In this document: positions 4,184 through 8,702 of the stretch, piece after piece
Numbering within the stretch: position 1 is the stretch's first letter
How the letters are laid out: every line of letters starts with the position of its first letter
Source: a virus
DNA length: 20,349 bases
IMG/VR virus record: IMGVR_UViG_3300036861_000959
Location: 1-20,349 of that record
Reading direction: 5' to 3' (one strand)
Notes under the pieces: model-generated
What the model saw: the letters and a program-made list of their open reading frames with translations, nothing else
Databases searched by the model: none
What the model was told of the DNA's origin: nothing
Program-made: the position numbers and the translations under genes

Positions 4184-4570
4184 CTATGCCCCCATCGCGG
4201 CCCGGCGTGCGTCGTAGTACAGTCGCCAGTCCGCCTTCAGACCGATCGTCGCGGCCAGGTCGTCGGGGATTAGGGAGCCACGCTTGACCAGCGCTCCCTC
4301 CGGAACCTCGCCGGAGGCGCGCACCAGGCGCGCCCGCTCTCCAGGCCTCAACTCGTAGCGCCAGCCGTCCACCGCCCAGATCCCCTTCTCGTCGTACGTT
4401 CCCCCCCACAGCAGGCCGGCCAGGTAGTAGGAATCGAACCCCGCCAGGCGCACGCGATCGCCGTCCGCCTGGATGTAGTCGACGACCTGGACGCGGTCGG
4501 CCGGCAGGTCCTCCCACTGGCCCCTCTGCCGCCAGGTCTTCTCGCCGTCGCTGTAGGTGATATCGAAAAT
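4184..4570 (-). CDS. Small phage tail-region protein, probable ATT start, 128 aa
   Basis: The frame is open from the stop at 4640 downwards and contains no ATG, and its first GTG lies only at 4453. Coding character clearly begins further upstream: the stretch starting FDITYSDGEKTW, then LPADRVQVVDYI and a G-x-D-x-Y element (GFDSYYLAG), matches the N-terminal pattern I know from small phage tail-region proteins, in which YSDG lies close to residue 5. An SD (GGAGGG) is placed 8 bases before ATT at 4570-4568, so I take ATT as the likely start; a conventional annotation would begin at GTG 4453 and lose 39 residues. The gene follows the HNH insertion and is joined stop-to-start with the next gene. 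Function unknown. An alternative is that the insertion or a point change destroyed a normal ATG. Confidence 0.65.
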   Translation of the reverse strand: MFDITYSDGEKTWRQRGQWEDLPADRVQVVDYIQADGDRVRLAGFDSYYLAGLLWGGTYDEKGIWAVDGWRYELRPGERARLVRASGEVPEGALVKRGSLIPDDLAATIGLKADWRLYYDARRAAMGA

Positions 4571-4601: not shown

Positions 4602-5153
4602 ATGTCCGAACTGGATCCACCGCCCGCCGCATCCCACCGTTACCGGCCGCCCCGTGCGCGGATCGTTCTCGCTTGCACGGTCTGCATGCGTCCGTATGTT
4701 CAACACAGATATAGGGCGCTCACTTCGAAGTTCTGCTCGAAGGCTTGCTGGTCCATGCGAGCGCCCAGGCCCGCATGCAGGCATTGTGGTCAGGTCTTCG
4801 CCAGGCGAACATTTCGAAAGACCTATTGCAGCCGATCCTCTAGGCAGAAGGGCATGGTCGGCCCAGACTCCACGCGCTGGATCGATGGACATACGCTCCA
4901 CCGCGAGCGAAACCGTTTCAGGGCGGAGCAGAAGCGGTGGAGGAGGGCCGTACTCGATCGGGATGGGCACTCCTGCCAGGATTGCGGATCCACGGAGAGG
5001 CTCGCCGCCCATCACCTCATGTCGTGGAAGGCGGCTCCAGACCTGAGATTCACGGTCTCGAATGGCGTTACTCTCTGTGCCGGTTGCCATGATGTAAGGC
5101 ATGGCAGACGCCATGGCAGACGCCACCACGACAAGCAGAAGTCTCAGCACTAG
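4602..5153 (+). CDS. HNH endonuclease with N-terminal zinc-binding segments
   Basis: The 183-residue protein has two Cys clusters in its N-terminal half (C25-x2-C28 with C45 and C50; C59-x2-C62 with C76), then a basic region (residues 100-120) and an HNH domain: C125-x2-C128, the H137-H138 pair, N154 in SNGVTLC, C159-x2-C162 and H163. This is the layout of phage-encoded HNH nucleases of the homing type, which nick or cut DNA using a His-metal site. It is on the opposite strand to its neighbours and its stop overlaps the stop of the gene on its right. GC is about 50% in the one stretch counted (4681-4740), well below the surrounding genes. A TAGAAT box lies 6 bases before the ATG with no convincing -35, so the transcript could be nearly leaderless. 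The HNH call is firm; mobility is inferred. Confidence 0.93.
   Translation: MSELDPPPAASHRYRPPRARIVLACTVCMRPYVQHRYRALTSKFCSKACWSMRAPRPACRHCGQVFARRTFRKTYCSRSSRQKGMVGPDSTRWIDGHTLHRERNRFRAEQKRWRRAVLDRDGHSCQDCGSTERLAAHHLMSWKAAPDLRFTVSNGVTLCAGCHDVRHGRRHGRRHHDKQKSQH
5101..5124 (+). repeat. 12-bp perfect tandem duplication
   Basis: ATGGCAGACGCC occurs twice in direct succession (5101-5112 and 5113-5124) near the 3' end of the HNH gene. It keeps the reading frame and duplicates a basic GRRH unit, giving the protein the tail HGRRHGRRHH. This looks like a slippage event. Confidence 0.9.
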
Positions 5154-5507
5154 ATCGTCCTCCAGGTGGCACCGTCCCAGCTCGAGTGCGCCCCCGTGTC
5201 CGTCGCGATGTAGAGACAGGGGTTCGCCGGCGAGGTCGGGCGGTCCCCCGCCAGCCCTGACAGGAGGACGTCGGCCAGCGTGATGGCCGTCACGCGGTTG
5301 ACCTGGTCGTATTCGACCGTCGCGTTGCCGCCCTTGATCTGCACGGGCGCCGGCGTCAGGTACTCGCCCGCCGGCGTCACGACGCTGACCCTCTCCTCGG
5401 CGATGGCCAGGTCCCCGCAGCCGGCGCGCCGCCACGGCCTGCTGGCCCGGCGTCGGTCCTGTCCCGCCGCCACCACCCCCGCCCCCGTCCCCCGGGTTGA
5501 TGCGCAT
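5150..5507 (-). CDS. Tail-tip protein with ATDTG-type C-terminus, interrupted by a one-base frameshift
   Basis: The start is ATG 5507-5505 with a GGAGG SD 7 bases upstream. Frame 1 gives MRINPGDG, a run of glycines, then TGPTPGQQAVAARRLR; after that the coding signal moves to another frame, continuing DLAIAEERVSVVTPAGEYL to the TAG at 5150. Removing one G from the GGGG at 5416-5413 (minus strand) joins the two halves into one coherent protein of about 118 residues. The C-terminal pattern LYIATDTGAHSSWDGATW is a phrase common at the ends of phage tail and fibre proteins. Without the correction the back half can only start at a GTG at 5476 that yields an Arg-rich nonsense leader. It may be a sequencing error, a recent mutation or a +1 recoding site; the function is inferred from the C-terminal motif and position. 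Confidence 0.6.
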
Positions 5508-5526
5508 CAGGCGGCCTCCGAAACTG

Positions 5527-5538
5527 GTTGCGCGCAAC
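5527..5538. promoter_or_regulatory. 12-bp palindrome overlapping the -35 box, possible operator
   Basis: GTTGCGCGCAAC is a perfect inverted repeat that contains the predicted -35 hexamer of the plus-strand cassette. A dimeric repressor bound here would block that promoter. The palindrome is seen; the operator role is inference. Confidence 0.4.
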
Positions 5539-5556
5539 GCCTCATGGGCGTACGAT
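5528..5556 (+). promoter_or_regulatory. Candidate sigma70-type promoter of the moron cassette
   Basis: TTGCGC (5528-5533) and TACGAT (5551-5556) are separated by exactly 17 bases and lie 38 bases before the ATG at 5594. The -10 matches 4 of 6 consensus bases and the -35 matches 3 of 6. The cassette opposes all neighbouring transcription and so needs its own promoter. Confidence 0.5.
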
Positions 5557-5593
5557 TCCGACACATACCGTCAGCCAGGGAGGAGGCTTCCGC

Positions 5594-6016
5594 ATGAAGA
5601 AGGTCGTCGTTGCGATGGGCATCGCCCTGTTCGTCGTGGTGTGGGCCGCAAGGGAGCTGCGCAAGATGCCTCGTCCCACCGAGGAACCGGCGCCGGCGCC
5701 CAAGCACGAAAAGCGGCCCGATGCTCAGATCACGCAGAACACGCCGAGCGATGGATCCCATCGGATATCCGTAAACCAGTGGCCTGGCTGCGCCGATCGA
5801 GAATATTTCGGTCAGCTCACGCGCTTTTCGGCTCAGGGAGACCGTGAGGCTTTCAATCGTGGACTTGCCGCCGGCATCGTCAACGGTGAATGCACCCTCT
5901 TCAAGAAGGGTGAGGTCGTGTTCACCGTGGATACTGCTATCTTCTCCGGGCTGGTTAAAGTCAGACGACGAGGCAACGTGCAGGGCTACTGGACCAACCT
6001 GGAGGCAGTTGACTGA
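5594..6016 (+). CDS. Membrane-anchored small periplasmic-type protein, 140 aa
   Basis: ATG 5594 has a long SD (GGGAGGAGG) a few bases upstream, preferred over an in-frame ATG at 5528 that would add an arginine-poor leader through the promoter. Residues 3-20 form one hydrophobic anchor (MKK then VVVAMGIALFVVVWAA), followed by a Pro/Glu/Lys linker (about 25-60) and a compact C-terminal domain with C66 and C100, which could form a disulfide, and the end pattern GLVKVRRRG followed by YWTNLEAV. I know this C-terminal pattern from many small exported bacterial proteins of unknown function. GC is about 55% in one stretch counted. It is 12 bases before the PDZ gene and probably co-transcribed with it. 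An envelope location is well supported; function unknown. Confidence 0.8.
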   Translation: MKKVVVAMGIALFVVVWAARELRKMPRPTEEPAPAPKHEKRPDAQITQNTPSDGSHRISVNQWPGCADREYFGQLTRFSAQGDREAFNRGLAAGIVNGECTLFKKGEVVFTVDTAIFSGLVKVRRRGNVQGYWTNLEAVD

Positions 6017-6028
6017 GAAGGAGGTCGA

Positions 6029-6820
6029 ATGACTGTTGAACGAATTGCTGCATGCGTTATGGGCCTCGCATCTCTCATCGTCGTATTGCCCCATCCCCTG
6101 CGAGCGGATGATGAGCTCGAGCCCCGTGGAGTCCTGGGCGTCTTCATGACTGACATTCCGCCCGGCCTGGAGGACGTCTTCGGCACGCCCAAGAGCCGTG
6201 GAGCCTTCATCGTCGATGGCATGCCCGTCCCGAGGCTGAACAGCAGCTCCCTGCCCACGAGCGAGACCGATATGGACTACCTGCGATCCGGCGATCTGGT
6301 CATTGAGATGGATGGCATGAAGATTCTGGGAACGGCCGATATGACACGAGAGCTGACCGGCAAGCGCCCTCGCCAGATCGTGCGGCTCACGGTCCTGCGC
6401 GATGGCAAGGAGACGCAGCTGCGATGCCGGCTGTCCGAAGGACCTCCGCTCCGATATGTTCCGGTCGATCTCTGCCTGGTCCCAAGCACCGGCAGCTTCG
6501 TCGGTATTGCGATGCTTGGCTCGTTGTTCGGCGTCGGACCGGTATGGGGGCTTCCGTATGGCTCTGAACTGACGGGCTGCTCCCACACCGTGCCTGCCTG
6601 CTCGGCGCTCGCCGTCGTGAGGCAGGACGAGACCCGAAGCGTCGTCGAGGTCGGCTCCGCGAACTTCCAGGCCGGCGGCGATTGGCGGCATCACACGCAT
6701 CGCACACCCGAAGAGTGCCAGAAGGAAAAGGCGCACCTGGCTGCGCTGAAGGAGCTGGCTCTCACGTCCGCACCTCGGACGACACCAACCGATACCCCTT
6801 CCTCTCCACGGCCTCGTTGA
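6029..6820 (+). CDS. Secreted PDZ-like domain protein without protease domain, 263 aa
   Basis: ATG 6029 follows an ideal SD (AAGGAGGT). Residues 1-26 look like a signal peptide ending HPLRA before DDEL. Residues about 33-137 read as a PDZ domain of the DegP/HtrA/S2P type: a GVLGVFM opening, then YLRSGDLVIEMDGMKILG and a closing VRLTVLRDGKE strand. There is no Ser-protease triad or HExxH, so it would bind rather than cut peptides. Residues about 155-178 are hydrophobic and Gly-rich; C184, C191 and C230 follow. The last 19 codons (Thr/Ser/Pro-rich) overlap the 3' end of the tape measure gene in antisense, suggesting that the insertion read into phage DNA and acquired a new C-terminus. GC is about 53% in one stretch counted. 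A role in modifying the host envelope or superinfection is inference. Confidence 0.8.
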   Translation: MTVERIAACVMGLASLIVVLPHPLRADDELEPRGVLGVFMTDIPPGLEDVFGTPKSRGAFIVDGMPVPRLNSSSLPTSETDMDYLRSGDLVIEMDGMKILGTADMTRELTGKRPRQIVRLTVLRDGKETQLRCRLSEGPPLRYVPVDLCLVPSTGSFVGIAMLGSLFGVGPVWGLPYGSELTGCSHTVPACSALAVVRQDETRSVVEVGSANFQAGGDWRHHTHRTPEECQKEKAHLAALKELALTSAPRTTPTDTPSSPRPR

Positions 6821-8702
6821 AGGCGTCGATCAAATCCCGCACGACACGTTGCTTGTCGAGGACGTGAAGATTGAATTGGGCGATGACGGACGATACGTCC
6901 GAGGATCGCCCCATGGACCGCGGTCGCCTCGCATCGCCAGCCTGCTCAGCGAGCGCGTCGAAGTTCTGCGCGAGATTGCGCGGCAGGACAACCTCTCCTG
7001 GCATGAGCATCGCGGCTACGGAATCACGACCAAGAATCCCTCCGGTGACGAGTCCTCCTTCGGCGGCGGATACAAGGCCGCCGCCGATGCTGGCGCCCCC
7101 GGCTCCGGCGGCCCCGCCAGCAATCTCGCTCCCGCCGCTCGTCGCGATCCCTAGAATGGCCCGCAGGATGAGCGCTTTCGCGATGGCCTTCGCCATATCG
7201 GCCAGCAGTCGCTTGAGAAACTGAGAGAAGGCAACCTTCGCGCCCATGGCCGCATCTATGAGCGCATCGCCTAGCTGCAGGGCACCTTGCGTCGCGGCTT
7301 CTCCAGCGGCCAGCTCGACATCACGCATTACCGAGCTCACGTTGGAAGTGGCACCGGCGGCCGCAGTCAGGTCCGTTATCCACCCTTGGGTCTGCTCGGT
7401 GATCTGAATGAGGGATTCGATGATGGCGTCGTACTGCTCCGGGTTGGCGCTCGTCTCCTGGGCTTCGGCGACCAGGGACAGAGCACGATCCACCGCCCCG
7501 GCCTGCCTCTCGAGCTGCTCGAGCGTGGGGCCGCCGAGCTGCTTCATCACCTCGTCCAGGGCCTCGGCTGCGGTGGTGACGGTCTGCAGATCGGTGCCCA
7601 CCTGCGGCACTACCTTCCCGACCCCGACGGTCCCGGTCTTCAGATTCTTGAGGGCGTCGTCCAGGGCCTTGAGCGCTTCTTCGCCGGCATCGCCCAAGCC
7701 CCCCACGAGAGCCCGTGCCCTCTCGAGGTCCGGGAGTATCTTGGCCATCCCAGCGGCGGCCCGAGCGATGCCCTCTGCGTCGAAGCCGAGCTTCTTTGCG
7801 GCGACCGCGCCCAGGGCGGTCACCAGGGTGCCGAGCGTCACGACGAACTCGGCCGCCCGGATGTTGCTCTCGATCAGCTGGACCTCCCAGGTGGCGAACT
7901 GCACCCCCAGCCGGGTGATGAAAATGGCCCCCTGGGCCCATAGCGTGATGAGCTCCCGGAAGGTGCCCCCGTGTTCCTTCACGATGCCGGTCGCCGCCTT
8001 GATCAGGCCCGAGAACACCTCGATGACCGTGCGGAAGGCCTCGCTCTCGATGATGTTCTTGCCGATCGTTTCCTCGAGGCGCTCGAACTCGATGCCGATC
8101 TGCGCCAGCGCGCCTTCGAATGTCTTCCCCTTGGCCTCGGCCGCGCCGTGCAGGTTCTGGAGCTGGCGGATGACCTGGTTGTAGCGCTCAGCCGATGTTG
8201 CCCCCTCGGCGAACTTGGTGTTGATGCCGGCGAGGCGGCCGGTCCCCTTGACGATGACGTTCGAGAGCTGGGTGGCGGCCGTGACGGCGTCGGTCCCTGT
8301 GGCGGCCGAATAGTCCAGGACCGCCCGGGTCGCCTGCTTCAGGCCCTCCCCCCGGAGCCGGCCGAACTGCGTCAGAAGGGAGAGGACGGAGGAGATGGTC
8401 TCGTCGTTGACCTTGGTCAGATCCTCCATCTCGTCGATGAAGGCGCCGAGGTCCGCACGGGTGGCCTCGGTGTTCTGGCCGACGGTCGTGAGCGCCTGGG
8501 CGAGGGCGACGTCCGACTTCTCCTGCTCGGAGGCGGCGTCGACGACCTTCTTGAACGCGATGGACATGGCGCCGGCGGCCGCCGTGACGCCGATGGCGAT
8601 GCCGGCGAACGAGGAGAGCGAGCTCAGGACCGAGTTGAGGGCCTTGCTCGCGTCGTTGCGCGCCTGGATGATGATGCTGACGGAGCGCTTCTTATCGGCC
8701 AC
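6762..8702 (-). CDS. Tail tape measure protein, 646 aa
   Basis: Sets tail length by extending inside the tube during assembly and is ejected with DNA. The N-terminal 30 residues are helical, then a hydrophobic stretch (about 30-50), long helical Ala-rich regions, further hydrophobic segments around residues 285-310 and 500-535, and a C-terminal motif at 547-575 with the GGLVTGGILGRDSVAAML and MPGEVVLPR pattern that marks many tape measures. At about 1.5 angstrom per residue 646 residues predict a tail near 97 nm. The start is GTG 8702-8700 with an AGGGGA SD; it overlaps the second chaperone ORF by 11 bases. The preceding chaperone pair confirms the call. Its stop lies inside the antisense PDZ gene. 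Confidence 0.93.
   Translation of the reverse strand: MADKKRSVSIIIQARNDASKALNSVLSSLSSFAGIAIGVTAAAGAMSIAFKKVVDAASEQEKSDVALAQALTTVGQNTEATRADLGAFIDEMEDLTKVNDETISSVLSLLTQFGRLRGEGLKQATRAVLDYSAATGTDAVTAATQLSNVIVKGTGRLAGINTKFAEGATSAERYNQVIRQLQNLHGAAEAKGKTFEGALAQIGIEFERLEETIGKNIIESEAFRTVIEVFSGLIKAATGIVKEHGGTFRELITLWAQGAIFITRLGVQFATWEVQLIESNIRAAEFVVTLGTLVTALGAVAAKKLGFDAEGIARAAAGMAKILPDLERARALVGGLGDAGEEALKALDDALKNLKTGTVGVGKVVPQVGTDLQTVTTAAEALDEVMKQLGGPTLEQLERQAGAVDRALSLVAEAQETSANPEQYDAIIESLIQITEQTQGWITDLTAAAGATSNVSSVMRDVELAAGEAATQGALQLGDALIDAAMGAKVAFSQFLKRLLADMAKAIAKALILRAILGIATSGGSEIAGGAAGAGGASIGGGLVSAAEGGLVTGGILGRDSVAAMLMPGEVVLPRNLAQNFDALAEQAGDARRPRSMGRSSDVSSVIAQFNLHVLDKQRVVRDLIDAFNEAVERKGYRLVSSEVRT

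What the first reader, a model, noticed from the sequence alone, without database searches (positions are those of the whole stretch)
5520..6820. Moron-like exported two-gene cassette inserted head-on into the tail operon
Between tape measure and tail-tip genes (minus strand) lie two plus-strand genes with their own promoter: an anchored 140-aa protein (N-terminal membrane segment, C66/C100) and a secreted 263-aa protein with a PDZ-like domain and no protease. GC is about 53-55% in two counted stretches versus about 72% in a structural gene. The pairing of an anchored small domain with a free periplasmic PDZ domain suggests a host-envelope function during lysogeny or infection, for example superinfection exclusion or modulation of a periplasmic protease. 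The family role is unknown, and this is the best candidate here for an undescribed system.
Basis: partly seen in the sequence, partly recalled or inferred. Interest (0 to 1): 0.65.

Follow-up and report, generated by a model that had tools for sequence, protein, structure and literature searches.

The report
Exported SH3-like/PDZ cargo genes in phage
A virus of bacteria carries two borrowed genes, pointing the wrong way inside its tail-building genes, that make small exported proteins; a relative of the first sits right behind the dormancy switch of another virus, which suggests they alter the envelope of the infected bacterium rather than build the virus particle.

Summary
The cassette is real. 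Two plus-strand genes (5594-6016, 140 aa; 6029-6820, 263 aa), each with a strong ribosome site, lie head-on in a minus-strand tail operon. Their third-position GC is 0.70 and 0.72, against 0.85-0.95 in 19 minus-strand genes. Gene 2 reads 59 bp antisense into the tape-measure gene. Overall GC is 60-63%; only a local trough reaches 55%. No sigma-70 consensus promoter was found. A longer, 99.99% identical record has an integrase, so the phage looks temperate.

Gene 1 encodes an exported SH3-like domain with two invariant cysteines, confidently modelled, unmatched in Pfam, NCBIfam and PHROGs. It is rare and scattered in bacteria. In one unrelated temperate phage contig its start overlaps (ATGA) the end of a CI-like repressor gene, a classic place for lysogeny-expressed exclusion genes.

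Gene 2 encodes an exported DegQ-type PDZ domain without its protease. The pair occurs nowhere else that I searched, so a two-protein system is not supported. Best reading: a moron of two exported cargo proteins, gene 1 probably acting at the envelope during lysogeny, most likely in superinfection exclusion. Function is untested.

The parts
5594..6016 (+). Gene 1 (P0001, 140 aa): N-terminal signal anchor (about 4-22), Pro-rich linker, then an exported SH3-like domain (about 57-140) with conserved Cys66/Cys100 flanking a two-helix insert
6029..6820 (+). Gene 2 (P0002, 263 aa): signal peptide, DegQ-type PDZ domain (32-137) without protease, Cys-containing C-terminal region (138-245) of unknown fold with a hydrophobic stretch 157-175; last 19 residues read antisense into the tape-measure gene
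5508..5593 (.). 86-bp divergent spacer between gene 1 and the start of minus-strand gene X (ATG at 5507-5505); holds one 12-bp palindrome (5527-5538), with another (5498-5509) overlapping the gene X start
6762..8702 (-). Tape-measure protein gene, right-hand neighbour; its last 59 bp overlap gene 2 tail to tail
5150..5507 (-). Gene X, left-hand neighbour, short structural-type gene with an apparent frameshift between its first ~35 codons and the rest
4602..5153 (+). HNH endonuclease gene, a second head-on low-GC3 (0.70) insert in the same tail operon

Best explanation
A moron: two bacterial-type genes for exported proteins, placed at a gene boundary of a temperate siphovirus tail operon and transcribed against it. 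Gene 1 makes a membrane-anchored SH3-like domain, probably held by one disulfide, that stands outside the inner membrane. I infer that it is made in the lysogen and acts at the envelope, most likely by binding peptidoglycan or an envelope protein and hindering DNA entry of other phages (superinfection exclusion). Gene 2 makes an exported PDZ domain that would bind exposed C-terminal peptides and so compete with or redirect a DegP/DegQ-type protease; it is probably a separate cargo gene rather than an obligate partner. Shown: gene structure, composition, export signals, PDZ by profile, SH3-like model, conserved cysteines, and the repressor-coupled relative. Inferred: expression in the lysogen, exclusion, and the PDZ mechanism. 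The confidence given is for the moron acting at the envelope of the lysogen; for superinfection exclusion in particular it is about 0.3.
For: Composition: GC3 0.70/0.72 against 0.85-0.95 in 19 minus-strand genes; codon log-odds -0.01/-0.11 against 0.28 and 0.46 for two minus-strand genes scored the same way. Boundary insertion, with the end of gene 2 read from tape-measure antisense. Temperate: the 37.5-kb record G001, 99.99% identical and circularly permuted, has a tyrosine integrase (PHROG 1, 9.5e-67) and repressor-type HTH genes. The gene-1 domain has bacterial relatives at 54-71% identity; bacterial and phage members have an N-terminal export segment and both cysteines. Viral contigs L050/L051 (identical to each other) carry a gene-1 domain (50-55%) whose ATG overlaps the stop of a Peptidase_S24 CI-like repressor gene, with a YdaS-type gene divergent and an integrase fragment on the same locus. 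In the phage with the closest repressor, Acidovorax phage Aval, that slot holds other genes, so it is a variable cargo slot. SH3-like fold: pLDDT over 90 for most of 61-140; VIA Z 7.5/7.2 to NlpC/P60 SH3 domains. Foldseek against BFVD finds phage proteins at E 7e-6 to 6e-3; two in PaBG and one in pf16, located by length, are exported with paired cysteines. Precedent: TP-J34 Ltp, a prophage-transcribed lipoprotein outside the membrane that blocks DNA injection (PMC3952083).
Against: No sigma-70 promoter and no expression data. In bacteria the domain is found outside phages, beside a small membrane-protein gene (L009, L010, L012), so its basic role may have nothing to do with phages. Only one independent repressor-coupled phage case. 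No related phage without the cassette was found, so insertion rests on internal evidence. Z 7.5 is within the range of common arrangements.
Confidence: 0.5

Rival explanations
1. Neutral or host-fitness cargo: two host-derived exported genes picked up recently, with an envelope-stress or cell-wall role in the lysogen that has nothing to do with excluding other phages.
For: Gene-1 relatives lie in bacterial contigs beside a small polytopic membrane-protein gene in three loci. PDZ-only exported proteins exist in two of the same bacterial genomes, near sigma-factor genes (L013, L015). The pair is not conserved.
Against: The gene-1 relative coupled to a CI-like repressor and the recurrence of the fold as exported proteins in other phages suggest repeated selection by phages.
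Confidence: 0.3
2. A true two-component system: the anchored domain (gene 1) and the exported PDZ protein (gene 2) bind one another and act together on a periplasmic protease or receptor.
For: 12-base spacing and shared composition suggest one operon; both exported.
Against: None of the gene-1 relatives in bacteria or in the L051 phage has a PDZ gene beside it; P0002 has no hit in the L051 record.
Confidence: 0.12
3. Late virion or lysis function: the proteins help lysis or tail function, for example by cell-wall binding through the SH3-like domain or a holin-like segment in gene 2.
For: The SH3-like fold matches cell-wall hydrolase domains. Part of the P0002 C-terminal region resembles the WGLPYGSE motif of Dp-1 holins.
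Against: The genes run against the late operon; the holin likeness was selected by an exact 8-residue pattern, and Pfam gives no match to that region at E up to 10.
Confidence: 0.08

Closest known systems
Ltp superinfection-exclusion lipoprotein of Streptococcus thermophilus phage TP-J34 (PMC3952083)
   Same: Small phage-encoded protein tethered outside the cytoplasmic membrane; gene close to a CI-type repressor gene, as for the L051 relative of gene 1
   Different: Ltp is a lipoprotein with sequence repeats and sits in the lysogeny module; here a signal anchor, an SH3-like fold, a gene in the tail operon, and exclusion untested
P22-type 'ant moron' with sieA (PMC2629481)
   Same: Independently expressed extra genes inside a virion-gene operon, including an exclusion gene
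   Different: No sequence similarity claimed; no related phage without the insert was found here
DegP/DegQ/HtrA proteases (TIGR02037)
   Same: P0002 33-137 aligns with the first PDZ domain of DegQ/DegP
   Different: Protease domain and second PDZ absent; a longer loop inside the PDZ; unrelated C-terminal region
Bacterial-type SH3 domains of NlpC/P60 wall hydrolases (6bim, 3h41)
   Same: SH3-like barrel of P0001, Z 7.5 and 7.2
   Different: Two-helix insert flanked by paired cysteines, no catalytic domain, no sequence match to Pfam SH3 families

Membership tests
Phage moron | Extra gene(s) in an operon with different composition and orientation, no gene of the operon broken | tested here: met
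   Opposite strand; GC3 0.70/0.72 vs 0.85-0.95; tape-measure stop and gene X start with its ribosome site are in place
Phage moron | Absent at the same site in related phages | tested here: inconclusive
   No relative found except the near-identical G001
Phage moron | Own promoter and terminator | tested here: inconclusive
   No sigma-70-type match, one chance-level terminator on the other strand; the host may use other promoters
PDZ domain (PF13180) | Score above the curated cut-off | tested here: met
   29.3 bits vs 27
DegP/HtrA protease (TIGR02037) | Trypsin-like protease domain and family cut-off | tested here: not met
   34.8 bits vs 416.2; only residues 33-137 match, preceded by a signal peptide alone
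SH3-like fold (P0001 domain) | Confident model that matches solved SH3 structures over the domain | tested here: met
   pLDDT >90 over most of 61-140; Z 7.5, rmsd 1.8, 60 residues aligned; Foldseek E-values against the PDB are weak
Superinfection exclusion protein | Made in the lysogen and blocks infection by other phages | not testable with these tools
   Needs RNA-seq and plating; only a positional hint from L051
Phage_holin_Dp1 (PF16938), for the P0002 C-terminal region | Profile match | tested here: not met
   No Pfam match to the region at E up to 10

The most novel reading that the evidence does not exclude
Gene 1 belongs to an undescribed family of exported, disulfide-held SH3-like proteins that temperate phages put in lysogeny-expressed slots to close the envelope to other phages, and here it has been joined by a protease-free PDZ protein that interferes with the periplasmic DegP/DegQ response.
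Probability: 0.15. Interest if true: 0.7.

Novelty: new variant of a known kind. Interest (0 to 1): 0.42.

Why it matters
It ties an unnamed exported domain, seen both in scattered bacteria and in unrelated phages, to the repressor operon of one phage. That gives a concrete, cheap hypothesis (envelope-acting exclusion) for a class of small exported phage proteins listed only as hypothetical. A protease-free PDZ domain exported by a phage would, if it acts on DegP/DegQ, be an uncommon way to interfere with periplasmic quality control.

Tried and rejected
Viral-contig scans with P0001, P0002, tape measure, major tail and tail-tip proteins returned only the same phage. Phage and plasmid collections gave no match for P0001; for P0002 nothing covering most of the protein, the better hits being DegQ-type PDZ domains. 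P0002 C-terminal region in 301 genomes: only weak hits. PADLOC: nothing for either protein. The P0002 structure model is unusable (pLDDT 38). The gene-1 profile finds no sequence match in PaBG or pf16, so those links rest on structure and architecture, and their identity with the BFVD entries on length. Dp-1 holin likeness: set aside as pattern-selected. Palindromes upstream: 12 perfect 12-bp palindromes occur in the window; the two at 5498 and 5527 are the only pair closer than 60 bp; not pursued. tRNAs: none in G001.

Full report
What was checked. The window is a 20,349-base IMG/VR record. A second record, IMGVR_UViG_3300036859_000606 (37,535 bases), is 99.99% identical over the compared part and circularly permuted against it. 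It adds a tyrosine integrase, HTH regulators, a ParB-like protein and a replication initiator. With the HK97-type head, portal, terminase and tape-measure genes of the window this is a siphovirus that looks temperate. No other relative of its tail genes was found.

The cassette. Two plus-strand genes at 5594-6016 and 6029-6820 lie between the tape-measure gene and gene X, both on the minus strand. Each has a strong ribosome-binding site and they are 12 bases apart. GC3 is 0.70 and 0.72; 19 minus-strand genes range from 0.85 to 0.95. On a codon log-odds model of the structural genes they score near zero (-0.01, -0.11), where two minus-strand genes score 0.28 and 0.46. Gene 2 runs 59 bases into the tape-measure gene in antisense, so its last 19 residues (LTSAPRTTPTDTPSSPRPR) are probably a by-product of the join (inference). 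The picture is of an insertion at a gene boundary that broke no gene. No sigma-70-type promoter was found. A plus-strand HNH nuclease gene at 4602-5153, GC3 0.70, is a second insert in the same operon; whether it brought the cassette is unknown.

Gene 1. P0001 has one hydrophobic N-terminal segment and a domain of about 84 residues. Pfam, NCBIfam, PHROGs and PADLOC give nothing meaningful. A genome scan found four bacterial relatives (MAGs named Chloroflexi, Acidobacteria, Armatimonadetes, Thermoanaerobaculia) at 54-71% domain identity, and a profile search a fifth, more distant one with a signal peptide. The family is rare: 2 of 301 and 1 of 396 genomes sampled, both counts including the seed genome. 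Members differ in the N-terminus (signal anchor, signal peptide, or zinc ribbon plus transmembrane helix in L011) but keep the domain behind an export segment, with both cysteines invariant. In L009, L010 and L012 the gene overlaps the end of a short membrane-protein gene. The AlphaFold model of the domain is confident (pLDDT mostly over 90) and SH3-like, with a two-helix insert. VIA-align places it with SH3 domains of NlpC/P60 wall hydrolases (Z 7.5, rmsd 1.8, 60 residues), a level that may mean only a shared arrangement. Against predicted viral structures Foldseek gives E 7e-6 for the best phage protein and below 0.01 for six. Three of the listed proteins, two in PaBG (adjacent genes) and one in pf16, could be found in the genome records by their lengths; all look exported (one with a lipobox) and carry two cysteines around the helical part. 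No sequence similarity links them to P0001.

The key find. A profile scan of viral contigs found a gene-1 domain in L050 and L051, identical stretches from two samples. There the gene (5704-6237, 177 aa, exported, 50-55% identical) begins with an ATG that overlaps the TGA of the preceding gene. That gene encodes a Peptidase_S24 repressor of the CI type, 53.5% identical to a repressor-type protein of Acidovorax phage Aval. A YdaS-type gene is divergent, and an integrase fragment lies on the same locus. In Aval the genes after the repressor are different and show no gene-1 domain. So in one independent temperate phage this domain is cargo of the repressor operon, the kind of place where lysogeny-expressed genes such as lambda rexAB sit (rexAB from established knowledge). 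No PDZ partner is present there.

Gene 2. P0002 has a signal peptide, then a PDZ domain above the Pfam cut-off, best matched by the first PDZ of DegP/DegQ, with a longer loop and no protease domain. The region 138-245 has no credible match; a hydrophobic stretch at 157-175 leaves open that the protein is membrane-bound. Its short likeness to Dp-1 holins was chosen by an exact pattern and fails Pfam. The model of the whole protein is unusable. PDZ-only exported proteins also occur in bacterial genomes that hold gene-1 relatives, but elsewhere in those genomes.

Reading. The most likely account is a moron of two exported cargo proteins; the first probably acts at the envelope of the lysogen. Superinfection exclusion is the best single guess because of the repressor-coupled relative and the precedent of Ltp (PMC3952083), but it is not shown.

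Noticed in passing
4602-5153 (+): HNH endonuclease gene inserted head-on in the tail operon. The next minus-strand gene (about 4184-4570) lacks a usual start codon (reads ...TSIFDITYSDGEK), as if the insert had separated it from a start next to gene X's TAGTG end.
   Followed up: partly
5150-5507 (-): Gene X looks frameshifted: codon usage supports one frame for the first codons (MRINPGDGGGGGGGG...) and another for the rest (...GDLAIAEERVSVV...). It could be a sequencing error or a real shift.
   Followed up: partly
5498-5509 and 5527-5538: Two perfect 12-bp palindromes (TGATGCGCATCA, GTTGCGCGCAAC) just upstream of gene 1, the only pair within 60 bp in the window; each occurs once in the phage. 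Possible operator, untested.
   Followed up: no
L051 5704-6237: Exported SH3-like gene translationally coupled (ATGA) to a CI-like repressor gene in an unrelated temperate phage contig.
   Followed up: yes
L009 4288-5150, L010 4306-5150, L012 4324-5150: In three bacterial contigs the gene-1 domain gene overlaps the end of a conserved small membrane-protein gene without a Pfam match.
   Followed up: partly
6497-6580 (P0002 about 157-184): VWGLPYGSELTG resembles the IWGLPYGSEVVG motif of Dp-1 phage holins after a hydrophobic stretch; probably chance.
   Followed up: partly
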